A stretch of DNA of 5,048 nucleotides from an uncultured Flavobacteriales bacterium. GTDB taxonomy: Bacteria > Bacteroidota > Bacteroidia > Flavobacteriales > Crocinitomicaceae. The position numbers and the translations under genes are program-made. Below, piece by piece: positions 500-5,010 of this stretch. The stretch lies in NCBI GenBank assembly GCA_946479125.1, contig CAMLET010000286.1:1-5048 (forward strand). The letters are read 5' to 3'. The notes beneath the pieces are model-generated. The model was given only the letters and a program-made list of their open reading frames with translations. It had not been told where the DNA came from and did not search any database. How positions within the stretch are numbered: the first letter of the stretch is position 1; the number at the start of each line of letters is the position of its first letter.

Positions 500-817
500 T
501 TATGCTACTCCGACTTCAGGATCAATTTCTGTAGCCCATGCAATAATTCCACCTTCCAAATTGTAAAGGTTTTCAAACTGATGATTCATTTCCAAAAACT
601 GAATAACGTTTGCGCTTCTTTTTCCCGAACGACATTGAACAATCACTTGTTTGTCGCGGGCAATTTTGTCCACATTCGCAGGAACATCATTCATTGGAAT
701 GTGTTCTCCATTAATGTTTCCCGTTTCGTACTCGTAATCCTCACGAACATCGATCAACTGAAATTCAGTTCCGTTGTCCATTAGATCTTTTAATTCTTTT
801 ACTGTAATTGATTTCAT
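500..817 (-). CDS. Single-domain rhodanese-like protein (sulfurtransferase)
   Basis: This 105-residue protein is one rhodanese domain with no signal peptide, so it is probably cytoplasmic. Diagnostic pieces in order are IDVRE (22-26), the substrate-side H39-I-P motif (EHIPMNDVP), the active-site loop QCRSGKRSA (61-69) with Cys62 as the predicted persulfide-carrying residue, and the closing LEGGIIAWATEIDP (87-100). The six-residue loop after Cys62 (RSGKRS) fits sulfurtransferases of the GlpE/PspE/YgaP type rather than Cdc25-like phosphatases, whose loop is one residue longer. The length is normal for the single-domain form. By family knowledge it moves sulfane sulfur from donors such as thiosulfate or polysulfide to a thiol acceptor; the physiological partner cannot be read here. 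The gene follows the NADP+ reductase in the same direction and is followed two bases later by the sensor gene. A repeat element fills nearly all of its upstream gap, and I see no good promoter there, so readthrough from the reductase gene is plausible. Confidence 0.93.
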   Translation of the reverse strand: MKSITVKELKDLMDNGTEFQLIDVREDYEYETGNINGEHIPMNDVPANVDKIARDKQVIVQCRSGKRSANVIQFLEMNHQFENLYNLEGGIIAWATEIDPEVGVA

Positions 818-822
818 ATTTA

Positions 823-926
823 AATTGAAAATTTAAAATGGAGAATTGAGAAGAAGTGGAATTGTTAATAGGCATTTCAACTAACACGTTTTAGACTTCT
901 ACATTTTCAATTTTCCATTCTCAATT
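823..926. repeat. Imperfect-palindrome intergenic repeat, copy A (104 bp)
   Basis: The gap between the reductase stop and the rhodanese start is almost wholly this element. Its two ends are inverted copies: the left end begins AATTGAAAATTTAAAATGG and the reverse complement of the right end begins AATTGAGAATGGAAAATTG, matching at about 24 of the first 31 positions. An inner TGTTA block also pairs in the same register. The reverse complement of the right end shares AATGTAGAAG, six variable bases, then ACGTGTTAG with the left end of copy B (2034-2165), so the two are members of one family in opposite orientations. No coding potential is seen. It resembles a MITE- or REP-like dispersed palindrome; no transposase is nearby. 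When transcribed it could form a long AU-rich hairpin just after the reductase gene. Confidence 0.75.
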
Positions 927-931
927 AATAA

Positions 932-1942
932 TTAGAAGCCTTGTACTCCGTTAACTGTTGTATATTTTAATACGTTTTTCTTTTCCGGGTGAATGCGAGC
1001 AAATGCACTTTGAACAGCCAGTGTTCCTTCATGGAAACCGCAAAGAATCAGTTTCAGTTTATTCTCATATGTATTAACATCACCAATAGCATAAATACCA
1101 GGTATGTTCGTTGAATAATCCAACGTATTTACTTTAATAGCGCTTTTCTCGATTTCCAATCCCCAGTTCGCAATCGGACCAAGCGACGGTTTCAAACCAA
1201 ATAAAGGAATAAAATGGTCAGTTGGACGAATGATTTCACCTTGTGTTTGATGTGTGATTACCACTTTTTCCACTTCAGAAGCACCCATTAATCCTGTTAC
1301 CTCAGCTTCAGTAATTAAAGAGATCGCTCCTTTTTCAGCAAGGTCAATTACTTTCTGAACTGAATCTAAATGTCCGCGGAAAGAAGCGCTTCTATGAACC
1401 AACACCACTTCAGAAGCGATGTTCTTTTCAGCTAAGAAAATCGACCAATCCAAAGCAGAGTCACCACCTCCGGCAATTACACATCGTTTGTTTCTGTAGA
1501 ATTCAGGATCCTTAATAATGTACTCAACCCCTTTATCTTCAAAATCAACGATGTTTTCAATAGGTGGTTTACGTGGTTCAAAAACACCCAATCCACCAGC
1601 AATAATAACAACCGGTGCTTTGTGCTTTGTTCCTTTTATGGTTGTAACGATGAATGATCCATCGTCTTGTTGATCAATTTCAGTTGCTGCTTCGCCAAGA
1701 GTAAATCCAGGTTTGAAAGGCGCAATTTGTTCCATCAGATTATCAACCAGTTCACCAGCCAAAACAGATGGGAATCCTGGAATGTCATAAATCGGTTTTT
1801 TGGGATAGATCTCAGAACATTGTCCTCCCGGTTGAGGAAGGGAGTCAATCAAATGACATTTTAACTTCAATAAACCTGCTTCAAATACGGTGAAAAGTCC
1901 GCATGGACCAGCTCCAATTATGATAATATCTGTTTCAATCAT
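932..1942 (-). CDS. Ferredoxin/flavodoxin-NADP+ reductase, thioredoxin-reductase-like type
   Basis: This 336-residue flavoprotein has the two-dinucleotide-domain layout of the thioredoxin reductase fold. The FAD site is DIIIIGAGPCG (5-15), followed by QPGGQCSEIYPKKPIYDIPG (37-56). The NADP(H) site is CVIAGGGDSALDW (154-166) with HRSASFRGH (183-191), whose basic residues suit the NADPH 2'-phosphate. The C-terminal FAD contact is IYAIGDVN (283-290). The redox-active CxxC of true thioredoxin reductases is absent: the central domain has GGGDSALDW directly and no Cys pair. Together with the C-terminal tail TTVNGVQGF this fits the homodimeric ferredoxin-NADP+ reductase group (YumC-like), which exchanges electrons between NADPH and ferredoxin or flavodoxin. 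Length is typical. A TATTTTTG box lies 18 bases upstream, so it probably has its own promoter. The rhodanese gene follows after 114 bases; a link with sulfur or redox metabolism is only an inference from position. Confidence 0.93.
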   Translation of the reverse strand: MIETDIIIIGAGPCGLFTVFEAGLLKLKCHLIDSLPQPGGQCSEIYPKKPIYDIPGFPSVLAGELVDNLMEQIAPFKPGFTLGEAATEIDQQDDGSFIVTTIKGTKHKAPVVIIAGGLGVFEPRKPPIENIVDFEDKGVEYIIKDPEFYRNKRCVIAGGGDSALDWSIFLAEKNIASEVVLVHRSASFRGHLDSVQKVIDLAEKGAISLITEAEVTGLMGASEVEKVVITHQTQGEIIRPTDHFIPLFGLKPSLGPIANWGLEIEKSAIKVNTLDYSTNIPGIYAIGDVNTYENKLKLILCGFHEGTLAVQSAFARIHPEKKNVLKYTTVNGVQGF

Positions 1943-1960
1943 TACTTAAAATTCGTTGTG

Positions 1961-1968
1961 CAAAAATA
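1961..1968 (-). promoter_or_regulatory. Probable Bacteroidota -7 box for the NADP+ reductase gene
   Basis: On the minus strand this reads TATTTTTG, an exact match to the Bacteroidota primary-sigma -7 consensus TAnnTTTG, followed by C. It lies 18 bases before the ATG at 1942, giving an expected leader of roughly ten bases. No convincing -33 TTG is visible at the usual spacing, so the call rests on the -7 box and its position. It lies between repeat copy B and the gene, so it is not part of the repeat. Confidence 0.55.
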
Positions 1969-2033
1969 AGGATTCATTGAAAATTATTTAGAATAATTCT
2001 ACGGAATTACAACAAGTTTAACACCATCTGACT

Positions 2034-2165
2034 AATTGAAAATTGAAAATGGGGAATGTAGAAGAGGAACACGTGTTAGATTTATCGAGATAAAACCTCG
2101 ATTCTTCAAAAATTGATTTTTAGCACGCTTCGGACTTTTCAATTTTGCATTTTCAATTTTCAATT
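2034..2165. repeat. Imperfect-palindrome intergenic repeat, copy B (132 bp) with perfect 18-bp terminal inverted repeats
   Basis: Positions 2034-2051 and 2148-2165 are perfect inverted repeats of 18 bases (AATTGAAAATTGAAAATG). Inward of these the arms keep pairing imperfectly, including an ACGTGTTA block at 2071-2078 against the inner right arm, where GCGTGCTA is read on the opposite strand. The centre holds two small hairpins: ATCGAG/CTCGAT (2084-2089 with 2097-2102) and AAAAAT/ATTTTT (2108-2113 with 2116-2121). Copy A at 823-926 is a relative in the opposite orientation. The right end overlaps the methyltransferase gene and provides its last three codons (I-E-N) and stop. The element lies between that gene and the reductase promoter, so it may act as an RNA-stabilising or terminating hairpin. 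It has no run of T suited to a classic intrinsic terminator at a fixed end. Confidence 0.8.
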
Positions 2166-2701
2166 GGAGCGATATATCGCTTTGCGAATTCCCAGGTCAC
2201 AATTCCTGCGCAAACTGCAACGTTGAAACTGTGTTTGGTTCCAAATTGAGGAATTTCGATAATGTGATCTGCAGCGTTAATTACTTCCTGATCAACACCA
2301 TCTACTTCGTTTCCAAAAACAAGCGCGAATTTTTGTTCGGTCAATTGATCGATTTCATGCAGAAACGTGGTTTTCTCCGTTTGTTCAATGGTGCAAACCG
2401 AAACATTGTTCGCTTTCAATTCTGAAACAAGATCAAGAATGTTTTCTCTGTATTCCCATTCAACAGTTTCTGTGGCGCCAAGAGCGGTTTTGTGAATGTC
2501 GCGATGTGGTGGAAGTGCCGTAATTCCGCACAAATAGATCTTTTCTACATTCAATGCATCTGCTGTTCTAAAGAAAGAGCCAATGTTGTTCAGACTTCTA
2601 ATGTCGTTTAGAACAAGAATTATCGGGAATTTTTCCTGTTGACGAAATTCTTCTTCACCAACACGGTCTAATTCCCACAGTTTTAATTTGCGATTTTCCA
2701 T
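2153..2701 (-). CDS. SpoU/TrmH-family RNA 2'-O-methyltransferase
   Basis: This is an S-adenosylmethionine-dependent enzyme of the knotted SPOUT class that methylates a ribose 2'-OH in tRNA or rRNA; the target nucleotide cannot be told from sequence. With the start chosen here it has 182 residues. Motif 1 is NDIRSLNNIGSFFRTADA (32-49), with Asn39 and the catalytic-type Arg45. Motif 2 is ALVFGNEVDGV (126-136). Motif 3 is IEIPQFGTKHSFNVAVCAGI (148-167), forming the trefoil-knot SAM site. There is no N-terminal L30e-like substrate domain, as in compact TrmH/TrmL-like members. The frame is open for 19 more codons, to an ATG at 2758. I prefer 2701 because homologues of this type begin close to the 'RKLKLWEL' segment, a -7-like box lies just upstream, and the extension would overlap the divergent lipoprotein promoter. 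The last three residues and the stop come from repeat copy B. Confidence 0.9.
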   Translation of the reverse strand: MENRKLKLWELDRVGEEEFRQQEKFPIILVLNDIRSLNNIGSFFRTADALNVEKIYLCGITALPPHRDIHKTALGATETVEWEYRENILDLVSELKANNVSVCTIEQTEKTTFLHEIDQLTEQKFALVFGNEVDGVDQEVINAADHIIEIPQFGTKHSFNVAVCAGIVTWEFAKRYIAPIEN

Positions 2702-2706
2702 CGGCG

Positions 2707-2714
2707 CGAAGATA
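2707..2714 (-). promoter_or_regulatory. Probable -7 box for the methyltransferase gene
   Basis: On the minus strand this reads TATCTTCG, one base away from TAnnTTTG, and ends five bases before the ATG at 2701. Such a spacing would make the mRNA leaderless or nearly so. The box would be inside the coding sequence if the longer ATG at 2758 were used, so it supports the shorter start. No clear -33 element was found. Confidence 0.4.
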
Positions 2715-2743
2715 CGATTTCGAACTTTAAGCCGTTTAAGAAC

Positions 2744-2773
2744 TTGCTGCTTGCGCACAAATTTGTAAACTTG
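2744..2773 (+). promoter_or_regulatory. Probable promoter of the three-gene lipoprotein cluster
   Basis: A TTG at 2744-2746 is followed, after 19 bases, by TAAACTTG at 2766-2773. This matches the Bacteroidota arrangement of a -33 TTG-type element and a -7 TAnnTTTG element, with one mismatch in the latter. The predicted start of transcription is about 2780, leaving a leader under ten bases before the ATG at 2788. It lies in the 86-base divergent gap shared with the methyltransferase gene, so the two directions could influence each other. Confidence 0.55.
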
Positions 2774-2787
2774 CCTTAATCAATAAC

Positions 2788-3612
2788 ATGAAACATCTAA
2801 TTATCACCGTTTTATTTTTCGGATTTCTATTTTCCTGTACAGTTGAAAAACGTTTGTACAATAAAGGATTTCATGTGGAATGGCATAAATCCATTAAAAA
2901 AGAGAAGTCAGAATCTTCGGAAGATTTTGCTTTAGCTTCTTCAGAGGCTGGTACTGAAAGTCAAAGTGCAGTTGTTGCTCTAGATTCTGCAATTGTTCAA
3001 GTTAGTGATGAATCTTCGAGTGATATTGGAACTGATGATTTGATATCAGAAGAACTGAATGAAAACCGTTCTTCAAATGTTGACTCAAACAAGAAAAAGG
3101 ATGATTCATCGGTTTCTTTAGAAGATGAAAAAGAAGTGAAAAAAGCGCCAAGTCCATGGCTTTCCATCTTTCCAATGATCATGATCGGTGGAGGGGCGAT
3201 GTTGCCCTATCTTGCTCTGACGAAAGATTTGATTCCATTACTGTTTGCGACTATCATATTAACCATACTAGGATATTATTTGTTTCAGATTTTCCGGGGA
3301 CATGCAAGAACGGAAGACAAAAATTATAGAGTTGTCGTTTCACTGTTTTATTCAACTACATTAACGTTTCATATTTGTGTTGCTTTGTTTTTGACGGCGA
3401 TCGAACTTTCATATGAAGAATCACCGATACTACCGTTTAATTTGGCTTATTATTGGGTTTTATTTGCATTGTTATTAATCTCAATTATTCGAAGTATCAA
3501 AGCAAAAAGAAAAGAGGGTGTACGTTTGCCAAAAGATTTTGCGATAAAGGTAATTCTAGCGTTTGTCGCACTTGCTTTCTGTGTTTTCAAAACGGTGGCT
3601 TTAATTGTTTGA
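2788..3612 (+). CDS. Predicted polytopic lipoprotein, first paralogue of the cluster (function unknown)
   Basis: I do not recognise a characterised family. The 274-residue product starts with a short lipoprotein signal: a hydrophobic stretch at 4-16 and a lipobox LFSC, with Cys17 as predicted lipidation site. The mature N-terminus CTVEKRLYNKGFHVEWHKS (17-35) is shared with the next two genes. Residues 36-120 form a Ser/Glu/Asp-rich, low-complexity linker with almost no hydrophobic core, so probably disordered. From about 125 to the end there are some five hydrophobic helices (about 125-145, 149-169, 183-206, 218-236, 251-274), with basic loops such as KAKRKEG (238-244). The C-terminal domain is larger than, and not clearly alignable to, those of the two following genes. 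It is the first gene after the predicted promoter and ends three bases before the next start. Envelope location is inferred; a lipid anchor plus helices suggests the inner membrane. Confidence 0.85.
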   Translation: MKHLIITVLFFGFLFSCTVEKRLYNKGFHVEWHKSIKKEKSESSEDFALASSEAGTESQSAVVALDSAIVQVSDESSSDIGTDDLISEELNENRSSNVDSNKKKDDSSVSLEDEKEVKKAPSPWLSIFPMIMIGGGAMLPYLALTKDLIPLLFATIILTILGYYLFQIFRGHARTEDKNYRVVVSLFYSTTLTFHICVALFLTAIELSYEESPILPFNLAYYWVLFALLLISIIRSIKAKRKEGVRLPKDFAIKVILAFVALAFCVFKTVALIV

Positions 3613-3615
3613 TCT

Positions 3616-4200
3616 ATGTTTCGAAGTCTTTTCATCTTGTTCATTATTGTTGGTTTTCTTTCAGGATGCTCCATTGAAAAACGCCTTTATTCTCGTGGTT
3701 ATCACGTGGAATGGAAAAAATCGCTGAAATCATCTGGTGAAAACCAAGCTGAAGCGAATGTGGTATTGCCTGAAGTGAAAGAGCAATCCCAGAAGGCAGG
3801 TTATTCGGAAGCTTTGGAACTACCTGCTTTGGATGAAGTTGATAATGAAAAAAAGACAACCACTGAAGAATCAACTCTTATTAACGAATCGAAATTAGTG
3901 TTACCGGTAAAAGACACCGTCTACATTTATGATGATCAGGTGGAGATTGAACCATTCGGTTTGGCAGCGTCATTATCGTTAGTGGGATCGTTTTTAATAA
4001 CCAGAATTCCAATTCCACAGGTTTGGTTAATTGCTCTGGCATTGTTTGCAGCGGCTTTCATTTTATCAATCATTTCCATGATTCATTTTGCTACTAACAA
4101 AGGGTATTACAAAACCAATGTACTGGGAGTATTAACCTTCATTTTGTGTTTGGTGGTAATTCTCATTTTTGCATTAATAATTATTGCATTCGCTTTCTGA
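3616..4200 (+). CDS. Predicted polytopic lipoprotein, second paralogue of the cluster (function unknown)
   Basis: The 194-residue product has a signal with a textbook lipobox LSGC (Cys18) and the shared mature N-terminus CSIEKRLYSRGYHVEWKKS (18-36). A polar, Glu/Lys-rich linker spans about 37-108. The C-terminal membrane domain starts at IEPFG (111-115), with strong helices at about 134-156 and 168-193 and a weaker hydrophobic segment at 114-129. Between the two strong helices is SIISMIHFATNKGYYKTN (151-168), matched in the third paralogue. This 'EPxG, helix, polar GYYK-type loop, helix' layout vaguely resembles DUF4190-like small membrane domains common in Bacteroidota; I treat that as a weak suggestion only. 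The start is three bases after the preceding stop (TGA-TCT-ATG), indicating translational coupling. No function can be assigned. Confidence 0.85.
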   Translation: MFRSLFILFIIVGFLSGCSIEKRLYSRGYHVEWKKSLKSSGENQAEANVVLPEVKEQSQKAGYSEALELPALDEVDNEKKTTTEESTLINESKLVLPVKDTVYIYDDQVEIEPFGLAASLSLVGSFLITRIPIPQVWLIALALFAAAFILSIISMIHFATNKGYYKTNVLGVLTFILCLVVILIFALIIIAFAF

Positions 4201-4266
4201 TACTACACATTACTCCTTTTCTTATAGAAGAGGGCACGAAAACGTAAAGCAAGTCGTTACTGTACT

Positions 4267-4869
4267 ATGCGACTTCTTTTTGCCATTGTACTTTCTATCA
4301 CCTTCATGTGTTCATGTACCATTGAAAAACGATTACATGGTCGTGGTTACCACATTTCGTGGAATAAAAAGTATTCCAGAGTTAAGAAGGATGAAGTGAA
4401 GAAACAATTGGAGGAAGAAGAGGTTGTTGAAGAAGAAGTCATTGATACACTTAGTACTTCTCAAAATGAAGAAGCTCTAATCGAAGAAGAACCAATTACA
4501 CCGCCAGAAGCCGATTCCACTGATATTTCTAGAGAAGATAGGAAAAAAGAACGTGCTGAGAAATATCCCGATTTACCTCGTGAGGACAGAAAGTTCGAGC
4601 CGCTTGGAGTGAAAGCTGTCAAACTTCTGGCATTGGATGGGCTTATTTTAATTTGGGCAGATAATGAGGATGATCATCAACGATATGTTGGATTAGCGCT
4701 TACATTTCTTATCGTTCTTGCAGTTGTTTTTGCCATGGGAATTGTTTCCATGATTCGCTACCTGAGGCATCCGAGGCATTATCGCTTCAATATCTGGGCG
4801 TTGCTCTGTATCTTCGTTGGTGCACTTTACATCACATTTGCCGTTTTGGGGACACTCGCTGTTTTCTAA
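4267..4869 (+). CDS. Predicted polytopic lipoprotein, third paralogue of the cluster (function unknown)
   Basis: The 200-residue product has a hydrophobic signal at 3-16 and a Cys17 placed like that of its paralogues. The lipobox here is MCSC, a less standard form with Met at -3 and an additional Cys15. The mature N-terminus CTIEKRLHGRGYHISWNKK (17-35) matches the other two, with Ser in place of Glu before the Trp. The linker (36-109) is highly acidic (a run of Glu around 49-57) and carries REDRK twice (89-93 and 105-109). The membrane domain opens with FEPLG (110-114), has helices at about 140-163 and 175-199, and carries GIVSMIRYLRHPRHYRFN (158-175), equivalent to the 151-168 segment of the second paralogue. 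A 66-base gap without an evident promoter or hairpin separates it from the second gene, so it is probably in the same operon. Confidence 0.85.
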   Translation: MRLLFAIVLSITFMCSCTIEKRLHGRGYHISWNKKYSRVKKDEVKKQLEEEEVVEEEVIDTLSTSQNEEALIEEEPITPPEADSTDISREDRKKERAEKYPDLPREDRKFEPLGVKAVKLLALDGLILIWADNEDDHQRYVGLALTFLIVLAVVFAMGIVSMIRYLRHPRHYRFNIWALLCIFVGALYITFAVLGTLAVF

Positions 4870-4892: not shown

Positions 4893-5010
4893 CCACAGAT
4901 GCGCAGATGACCTGGGCGCTTATATCTTCCGCCGCGGCGGACTCGATAACCGCCAGTCGTGAACCGAAAAAAGCTAGTCCGGTAGGCGAGCAAAATCTGT
5001 GCATCTGTGG
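4893..5010. repeat. GC-rich intergenic element bounded by 16-bp inverted repeats
   Basis: CCACAGATGCGCAGAT at 4893-4908 is the inverted copy of ATCTGTGCATCTGTGG at 4995-5010, with one difference that would be a G-U pair in RNA. Each arm is itself a short tandem (CAGAT/GCGCAGAT-type). The interior is clearly richer in G and C than the flanking genes and contains a perfect 12-bp palindrome, CCGCCGCGGCGG at 4929-4940. Its last five bases can alternatively pair with CCGCC at 4950-4954. CGGACT (4938-4943) is also repeated inverted as AGTCCG (4976-4981). No credible reading frame exists. It starts 24 bases after the last lipoprotein gene, so it could end that transcript, but the size and layered symmetry fit a dispersed mobile-type repeat as well. 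Confidence 0.7.

What the first reader, a model, noticed from the sequence alone, without database searches (positions are those of the whole stretch)
2788..4869. Three tandem lipoprotein paralogues share a conserved mature N-terminus but have divergent bodies
All three proteins carry C-[ST]-[VI]-E-K-R-L-x3-[KR]-G-[FY]-H-[VI]-x-W-x-K starting exactly at the predicted lipidated Cys, while the linkers are unrelated and the C-terminal membrane domains range from similar to unalignable. Codons in this block differ at many third positions while residues are kept, which points to selection on the protein rather than recent duplication. A conserved module right at the lipid anchor, attached to variable cargo, suggests a sorting, docking or processing tag for an undescribed envelope system. 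The function is inference; the pattern is seen directly.
Basis: partly seen in the sequence, partly recalled or inferred. Interest (0 to 1): 0.7.

Follow-up and report, generated by a model that had tools for sequence, protein, structure and literature searches.

The report
Shared N-terminal module on membrane lipoproteins
Many bacteria related to Fluviicola carry envelope lipoproteins that share the same short module at the lipid-anchored end, joined by a flexible spacer of nearly constant length to one of several unrelated membrane pieces, which suggests a reusable docking head whose function is unknown.

Summary
In detail: three tandem ORFs (2788-3612, 3616-4200, 4267-4869) share a block that starts at the lipobox Cys, while spacers and C-termini differ. 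The block recurs widely. A 28-position profile hits 109 of 249 genomes of the order and 85 of 295 of the class; 18 genomes picked from hits hold 1-10 copies. No Pfam or NCBIfam family was found to cover it. It sits on different C-terminal membrane families (TM2, Pmp3, DUF4190, DUF5670, orphans). The Cys-to-first-TM spacer has nearly the same median whatever the body (123-134). A DUF2752 gene follows TM2 bodies (17 of 21) and Pmp3 bodies (12 of 25) but no other body (0 of 151). AlphaFold2 makes the block a beta-hairpin. In divergent members the Cys lies further upstream, and one has none nearby, so a Cys-linked sorting signal is less likely; the known surface-export signal is absent (0 of 211). 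Best reading: a docking hairpin on a long flexible tether anchored by an interchangeable membrane hairpin. Partner and location are unknown.

The parts
2788..3612 (+). Gene 1, 274 aa lipoprotein with a C-terminal membrane region of its own type
   Evidence: ORF; no Pfam or NCBIfam family over cut-off; one relative over most of the length, P0006, 42% identity over 95% (P0005 of that list looks like the window's own protein)
2836..2895 (+). Module of gene 1, from lipobox Cys
   Evidence: Pattern match; AF2 strands at residues 17-21 and 28-32, block means pLDDT 90-93 for residues 1-30 and 79 for 31-40
2896..3162 (+). Spacer of gene 1, predicted disordered
   Evidence: AF2 block means 43-59 for residues 41-130; the end coordinate is approximate, from the hydropathy scan
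3616..4200 (+). Gene 2, 194 aa lipoprotein, DUF4190-like C-terminal helices
   Evidence: ORF; relatives P0001-P0004 at 43-50% identity; 'DUF4190-like' is my reading, Pfam gives no match over cut-off
3667..3726 (+). Module of gene 2, from lipobox Cys
   Evidence: Pattern match; AF2 strands at residues 18-22 and 29-33, block means 66-81
3727..3951 (+). Spacer of gene 2, predicted disordered
   Evidence: AF2 block means 53-69 for residues 31-110
3952..4194 (+). Three C-terminal helices of gene 2
   Evidence: AF2 helices 113-129, 136-160, 169-193, block means 90-98
4267..4869 (+). Gene 3, 200 aa lipoprotein, C-terminus related to gene 2
   Evidence: ORF; BLASTP 28% identity over 196 columns with gene 2
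4315..4374 (+). Module of gene 3, from lipobox Cys
   Evidence: Pattern match

Best explanation
The three genes encode members of a large family of envelope proteins built from three parts: a small N-terminal module (about 16 residues, predicted beta-hairpin) at or near the lipidated Cys; a flexible spacer, so that the first membrane segment usually starts 110-150 residues after the Cys; and a C-terminal membrane hairpin or bundle drawn from several families. Most likely the C-terminal helices hold the protein in the inner membrane, and the hairpin is a docking head that the spacer lets reach a partner in the periplasm, the cell wall or the outer membrane. Shown: architecture, recurrence, near-constant spacer, body exchange, the DUF2752 neighbour of TM2 and Pmp3 bodies. 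Predicted: hairpin fold, lipidation, disorder. Inferred: inner-membrane anchorage, docking, reach across the periplasm, and that DUF2752 acts with the membrane hairpin.
For: Module recurs on different bodies: of 114 full proteins 32 match DUF4190, 16 TM2 and 14 Pmp3 at E <= 0.01, and one DUF5670 body is over its cut-off (L250). Positions left free by the search pattern are conserved too: +2 T/S 110 of 119, +4 E/Q/T/K 113 of 119, +15 E/D/S 94 of 119. Spacer medians by body: DUF4190-like 123, DUF5670 130, Pmp3 130, TM2 133.5, rest 126; where a beta domain is inserted the Cys-to-TM distance is longer, medians 161-174.5, as if the flexible length were added to and not replaced. Hairpin in both AF2 models. 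Module kept when the Cys lies further upstream (18 of 21 fetched divergent proteins) or is absent nearby (L295), as expected of a binding head. DUF2752 directly downstream only with TM2 or Pmp3 bodies. In genomes chosen for it, 11 of 11 Pmp3 copies and 11 of 14 TM2 copies sit at module loci.
Against: No partner, ligand or localisation is known. Spacer constancy may partly reflect shared descent: related proteins were not collapsed, and the control set for spacer length was too small (9 proteins). Lipid anchor and helices could sit in the same membrane, so that the spacer is only a loop. Bodies without a membrane segment exist (L038; L302 by my reading), which need no tether. The window's three genes have no DUF2752 neighbour in the window. 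A copy of Pmp3 without the module exists (77-aa frame in G592), and three of 14 TM2 copies lie away from module loci. AF2 strands in such a short segment rest on the same conserved columns. No PDB relative of the module by sequence; no fold match for the gene 2 model at E <= 0.001.
Confidence: 0.4

Rival explanations
1. Lipoprotein sorting signal: the block tells the Lol machinery to leave the protein in the inner membrane (or directs it elsewhere), which proteins with C-terminal helices would need.
For: K-R at a fixed +5/+6 after the Cys in 218 of 232 hits (that set is mostly pattern-picked); 208 of 211 proteins have a TM segment after the Cys by hydropathy; positive net charge, mean +3.3 over +2 to +22.
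Against: Divergent members keep the block with the Cys further upstream (Cys-to-K 5-14 in 18 of 21; these were picked for late-starting profile matches, and five of them are near-identical). L295 has no Cys in the 30 residues before the block; L290 has one only within its signal, 17 before. The known Bacteroidota export signal is position-critical in C. canimorsus (PMC5080379, passages read) and does not match (0 of 211). Sixteen residues are more than a sorting rule should need (inference).
Confidence: 0.22
2. Assembly or regulation inside the inner membrane: the hairpin packs against its own helices or against DUF2752-type partners, as a subunit contact or a regulated cleavage site, with no reach across the periplasm.
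For: Operon-like arrangement with DUF2752 for TM2 and Pmp3 bodies.
Against: The same module is used on bodies that had no DUF2752 directly downstream (0 of 151); the spacer is long and of low confidence in both models.
Confidence: 0.2
3. Shared descent only: one fast-evolving family kept its N-terminus because of signal-peptide processing and its body drifted beyond recognition.
For: Tandem copies (window; L030, L061, L081, L109) show that duplication goes on; genes 2 and 3 share their C-terminus. Distant kinship between the bodies was not excluded: my own profile comparison was spoilt.
Against: TM2, Pmp3, DUF4190 and DUF5670 are separate Pfam families; Pmp3 and TM2 also match in control genomes outside this group (2 and 4 of 14), so bodies were probably exchanged, not only drifted. 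Processing does not explain G at +11, H/Y at +13 and W at +16 (G and W were set by the pattern, but HMM-picked relatives keep G and mostly Y/F/W-H/Y).
Confidence: 0.15
4. Chance or composition.
For: None found.
Against: 0 of 200 shuffles have even one match; profile E-values down to 1e-16 for one genome; the 5 of 120 scan stretches without a signal-like segment lie in other taxa or a short broken frame.
Confidence: 0.01

Closest known systems
Lipoprotein export signal (LES) of Bacteroidota (Lauber et al. 2016, PMC5080379; passages read)
   Same: Short conserved stretch directly after the lipidated Cys of Bacteroidota lipoproteins
   Different: LES is K-(D/E)2 or Q-A-(D/E)2 in C. canimorsus, SDDDD or SDDFE in others, at +2 to +6; here 0 of 211 have two acidic residues there, the block is about 16 residues with K-R, G, Y/H and W, and bodies are mostly membrane-embedded
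Inner-membrane retention by the +2 rule of E. coli (recalled)
   Same: N-terminal determinant that could keep a lipoprotein in the inner membrane
   Different: No Asp at +2 in 211 proteins; block much longer; spacing to Cys varies
TM2 (PF05154), Pmp3 (PF01679), DUF4190 (PF13828), DUF5670 (PF18919)
   Same: C-terminal bodies of many module proteins match these families
   Different: They are models of about 43-51 positions for TM2, Pmp3 and DUF5670 that match the C-terminal body; the module, signal and spacer lie outside
Envelope-spanning proteins such as TonB, TolA and Lpp (recalled)
   Same: Membrane anchor plus an extension long enough to cross the periplasm
   Different: Not compared by sequence here; in this family the head is a lipid-proximal hairpin at the N-terminus and the bodies vary

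Membership tests
Bacteroidota LES surface lipoproteins | K-(D/E)2, Q-A-(D/E)2 or S-(D/E) rich at +2 to +6 | tested here: not met
   0 of 211 match; 0 of 211 have two or more acidic residues at +2 to +6
Bacteroidota LES surface lipoproteins | Fixed position relative to Cys | tested here: inconclusive
   Cys-to-K spacing 4 in 218 of 232 (mostly pattern-picked) but 5-14 in 18 of 21 divergent proteins picked for late profile starts
Bacteroidota LES surface lipoproteins | Exposure on the cell surface | not testable with these tools
   Needs surface labelling
Bacterial lipoproteins | Signal peptide with lipobox and Cys | tested here: met
   119 of 125 testable motif proteins have [LIVFMATS]-x-[SAGN]-C; 114 of 126 have an ATG 12-35 residues upstream. 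Of the divergent proteins L295 has no Cys nearby and L290 none with a normal lipobox signal by my reading
Bacterial lipoproteins | Actual lipidation | not testable with these tools
   Needs labelling or mass spectrometry
TM2 / Pmp3 / DUF4190 families | Match over Pfam cut-off by the window proteins | tested here: not met
   No Pfam or NCBIfam match over cut-off for the three window proteins; other module proteins do match
BamJ (NF053689) | FKBP-type isomerase domain | tested here: not met
   Weak match only, E 0.0036, 17.6 bits against a cut-off of 100; 5 of 6 genomes hold a separate protein over the cut-off; BamJ is a peptidyl-prolyl isomerase (PMC12578637, passages)
Solved structures | PDB relative of the module or of gene 2 | tested here: not met
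   Module profile: one match, E 3.1, an antibody chain. Gene 2 model: 0 Foldseek matches at E <= 0.001, best 1.5. The gene 1 model was not searched

The most novel reading that the evidence does not exclude
A previously undescribed envelope tether system: one docking hairpin, a measured flexible spacer and swappable inner-membrane hairpins (TM2, Pmp3, DUF4190, DUF5670) make a set of 'fishing lines' that link the inner membrane to a common cell-wall or outer-membrane receptor, several lines per cell, each with its own membrane-side job.
Probability: 0.2. Interest if true: 0.85.

Novelty: new variant of a known kind. Interest (0 to 1): 0.6.

Why it matters
It gives one handle on many membrane lipoproteins without a described function (211 full proteins gathered here), and a context for TM2, Pmp3, DUF4190, DUF5670 and DUF2752, small families that Pfam mostly lists as of unknown function. 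If the hairpin has a receptor, finding it would show how these bacteria connect their envelope layers.

Tried and rejected
Pfam and NCBIfam for a known domain over the module: none over cut-off in the window proteins; in the scans of 114 proteins the output lists families without positions and only the 25 commonest of 32 and of 31, so there I rely on the family names. BamJ relation suggested by a weak NCBIfam match (E 0.0036): rejected, BamJ is an isomerase. A universal genomic partner: not found; among the 25 neighbour clusters shown only the DUF2752 cluster occurs near module genes in more than 5 loci, and its downstream copies sit beside TM2 or Pmp3 bodies; one further DUF2752 gene lies 3.5 kb upstream of a DUF4190-type body (L062). 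PDB by sequence and by fold: nothing. My iterative body clustering drifted and merged TM2 and Pmp3; I replaced it by simple regex labels, which are rough (a few of the 26 'Pmp3' look misfiled, for instance L085), and I do not use its profile comparisons. The control of 71 other putative lipoproteins left out by construction any protein with the motif; it shows only that no other common block stands out (commonest residue K at +3, 23 of 71). Phylum-wide draws gave few hits (3 of 395 with A4 at E <= 0.001, of which one is a 29-aa frame; 7 of 395 with A5 at E <= 0.01), against 85 of 295 in the class draw; how the draws are spread is not told, so I give no phylum frequency. A resemblance to the N-terminus of SprE/PorW was recalled and not tested. 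Promoter, terminator and Rfam scans of the window gave nothing above chance. Paper searches (open-licence PMC papers only) listed no paper that by title or abstract start describes the motif; for only 15 of 231, 12 of 55, 12 of 7,620 and 10 of 15 papers were listed. 'DUF2752' is in none of the papers.
Full report
OBSERVATION. The window holds three tandem ORFs on the + strand at 2788-3612, 3616-4200 and 4267-4869, 3 and 66 bases apart. Each begins with a signal-like segment ending in a lipobox-type Cys, and from the Cys (codons at 2836, 3667, 4315) runs the shared block. A degenerate DNA pattern for the block matches these three places and none in 200 shuffles. Gene 1 aligns with genes 2 and 3 over the N-terminal part only; genes 2 and 3 also share the C-terminal membrane region. 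Identical residues in the block often use different codons (7 of 14, 5 of 10, 4 of 12 for pairs 1-2, 1-3, 2-3).

RECURRENCE. In 115 of them, giving 126 proteins with the three of the window, the match follows a signal-like segment; 5 stretches (L002, L016, L037, L100, L120) I judged by eye to be chance matches. Of 125 proteins with enough upstream sequence, 119 have [LIVFMATS]-x-[SAGN]-C, and 114 of 126 have an ATG 12-35 residues upstream. By record title 111 of the 115 are Bacteroidota or a group within it; L023 and L036 say only 'bacterium', L058 says Glaciecola and L113 Saccharospirillaceae. The contigs of L036, L058 and L113 have the same lengths as contigs of G549, G528 and G422, which the tool draws in the order (G549 and G528 also in the family) of Fluviicola, so the last two titles look wrong. 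In the 119 distinct blocks, positions that the pattern left free are conserved: +2 T or S in 110, +4 E, Q, T or K in 113, +15 E, D or S in 94, and -1 S in 96. A 28-position profile (A4) finds the module at E <= 0.001 in 57 of 100 genomes of the family of Fluviicola chungangensis, 109 of 249 of its order, and 85 of 295 of the class of G690 (the tool gives no group names; Bacteroidia is my reading). Phylum-wide draws gave 3 of 395, one of them a 29-aa frame. In 18 genomes picked because they hold a scan hit, copies number 1 to 10 (6 genomes at E <= 0.01, 12 genomes at E <= 0.001). No Pfam or NCBIfam family over cut-off matches the window proteins, and the families listed for 114 module proteins are body families or weak matches.

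BODIES. From the 126 proteins 12 were dropped (running off the contig, too short, or L041), leaving 114. Of these, 32 match DUF4190, 16 TM2 and 14 Pmp3 at E <= 0.01; the listing does not say which pass the cut-offs. A DUF5670 body is over its Pfam cut-off (L250), while a similar one (L139) is not. Others carry an extra beta domain before or after the helices (for instance L107 and L067, NCBIfam matches below cut-off). L038 has no membrane segment by hydropathy, and L302 by my reading has a soluble C-terminus. One genome, G690, holds ten copies on several different bodies. In 12 genomes, 10 of them chosen for a module-Pmp3 protein, all 11 Pmp3 copies lie at module loci. In 12 genomes, 10 chosen for a module-TM2 protein, 11 of 14 TM2 copies do. 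Of the 10 Pmp3 genomes 6 have no TM2, and 3 of the other 4 have it at a module locus. Of the 10 TM2 genomes 7 have no Pmp3; the other 3 hold 4 copies, of which two have the module (L330, L332), one is a 77-aa frame without it and one (L331) I did not resolve. So the two bodies often but not always replace each other. Genomes were picked from earlier hits, so these are not frequencies.

SPACER. From 232 profile hits 211 full proteins were kept; 21 were dropped as open-ended, short, masked or without a Cys. By a simple hydropathy scan 208 of 211 have a TM segment after the Cys; the exceptions are L038, L137 and L268. In 173 without a recognised beta domain the first TM starts 92-217 residues after the Cys (median 127, 10th-90th percentile 113-153). 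Medians by body are 123 (DUF4190-like, n 19), 130 (DUF5670, n 5), 130 (Pmp3, n 26), 133.5 (TM2, n 16) and 126 (rest, n 107); with a beta domain they are 161, 165.5 and 174.5 (n 7, 22, 6). Body labels here are regex-based and related proteins were not collapsed. At about 0.34 nm per residue (textbook value) about 107 spacer residues could stretch to about 36 nm, enough for a periplasm; that is inference. Among 71 putative other lipoproteins of the same loci, chosen to lack the motif, only 9 had any later TM segment, so this control for spacer length is too small.

PARTNER GENE. Among neighbours in the loci (up to 8 kb each), one family stands out: 19 loci, 18 of them within 600 bases of a module gene, same strand, downstream, 0-26 bases away. 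The nineteenth (L062) lies 3.5 kb upstream of a DUF4190-type body. Three tested copies are DUF2752 over cut-off. In the wider set a DUF2752-like frame (found by a Cys motif, not by Pfam) follows 17 of 21 TM2 bodies, 12 of 25 Pmp3 bodies, and 0 of 151 others; 14 proteins with too little downstream sequence were left out, 1 TM2, 1 Pmp3 and 12 others. The window genes belong to the others. No paper of the library holds the word DUF2752.

DIVERGENT MEMBERS. Weak profile hits were fetched on purpose, 20 stretches and 20, the latter picked mostly because the profile match starts late. In the second set, 21 proteins, the Cys lies 5-14 residues before the K-R in 18, 4 in L302, 17 in L290, and none is found within 30 in L295; five of them (L286-L289, L291) are nearly the same protein. 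In the earlier, mostly pattern-picked set it is 4 in 218 of 232. Two far-Cys members also have Pmp3 bodies and a DUF2752 gene (L203, L197), which supports homology. The signals of L290 and L295 end in an A-Q type site, like signal peptidase I substrates of Bacteroidota (my reading; PMC5837995, title and start of abstract seen in a listing); the Cys in L290 lies inside its signal. So the module proper is K-R-x-[YH]-x-x-G-[YFW]-[HY]-[IV]-x-[WF], and it does not seem to need a fixed distance to the lipid.

STRUCTURE. AlphaFold2 with 114 sequences gives gene 1 strands 17-21 and 28-32 (residues 1-30 mean pLDDT 90-93, 31-40 79), a low-confidence spacer and four long helices (block means 55-83). With 44 sequences gene 2 gives strands 18-22 and 29-33 (66-81), a low-confidence spacer and three helices at 90-98. 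The PDB has no relative of the module by sequence and none of the gene 2 model by fold at E <= 0.001; the gene 1 model was not searched.

MECHANISM. A head that stays constant while the membrane body changes, a flexible spacer of nearly set length, and a module that tolerates a shifted lipid position fit a docking head on a tether better than a sorting signal. That the helices lie in the inner membrane follows from general knowledge of alpha-helical membrane proteins; lipidation, docking and the partner are inferred. I put the docking-tether reading at 0.4, sorting at 0.22, in-membrane assembly at 0.2, and descent without further function at 0.15.

KNOWN KINDS. The surface-export signal of Bacteroidota (PMC5080379, passages) is acidic and position-critical; none of 211 proteins matches it. 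The main text of a paper on LolA and LolB in F. johnsoniae (PMC11885536, passages) has no hits for 'retention' or 'avoidance'. Searches of open-licence papers listed no description of this module (several lists were cut). YqaE, which I recall to be the Pmp3 protein of E. coli, is induced when LolCDE is inhibited (PMC5105897, two passages), a hint at most.

VERDICT. Real, widespread in the relatives of Fluviicola, not found in the family libraries, function unknown. I call it a new variant of a known kind (N-terminal modules of envelope lipoproteins), with interest 0.6.

Noticed in passing
window 4893-5010: Intergenic element after gene 3: 16-nt inverted repeat arms (94% complementary, 86 nt apart) around a GC-rich palindrome at 4915-4954.
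   Followed up: no
window 822-936 and 2034-2168: Two related AT-rich imperfect palindromes between genes, 78-82% alike to each other in parts.
   Followed up: no
window 500-2758, minus strand: Neighbours are ordinary: rhodanese-like protein (500-817), FAD/NAD oxidoreductase (932-1942), SpoU-type RNA methylase (2153-2758).
   Followed up: partly
L007, L014, L020, L083 and others: DUF2752 genes directly downstream of TM2- or Pmp3-bodied module proteins, a recurrent two-gene unit; the word DUF2752 is in no paper of the library.
   Followed up: yes
L107, L109, L067, L249: A small beta domain inserted before or after the helices in many members; a similar stretch also occurs in neighbour genes such as L087 408-1326.
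   Followed up: partly
L290, L295: Module behind a signal that looks like a signal peptidase I substrate; no Cys within 30 residues in L295, one only inside the signal in L290.
   Followed up: partly
L302: Module lipoprotein whose C-terminus looks to me like a type IX secretion tail; not tested.
   Followed up: no
L058 (CP034120.1) and L113 (CATLPG010000026.1): Records titled Glaciecola amylolytica and Saccharospirillaceae have the lengths of contigs in G528 and G422, drawn in the order of Fluviicola; the titles look wrong.
   Followed up: partly
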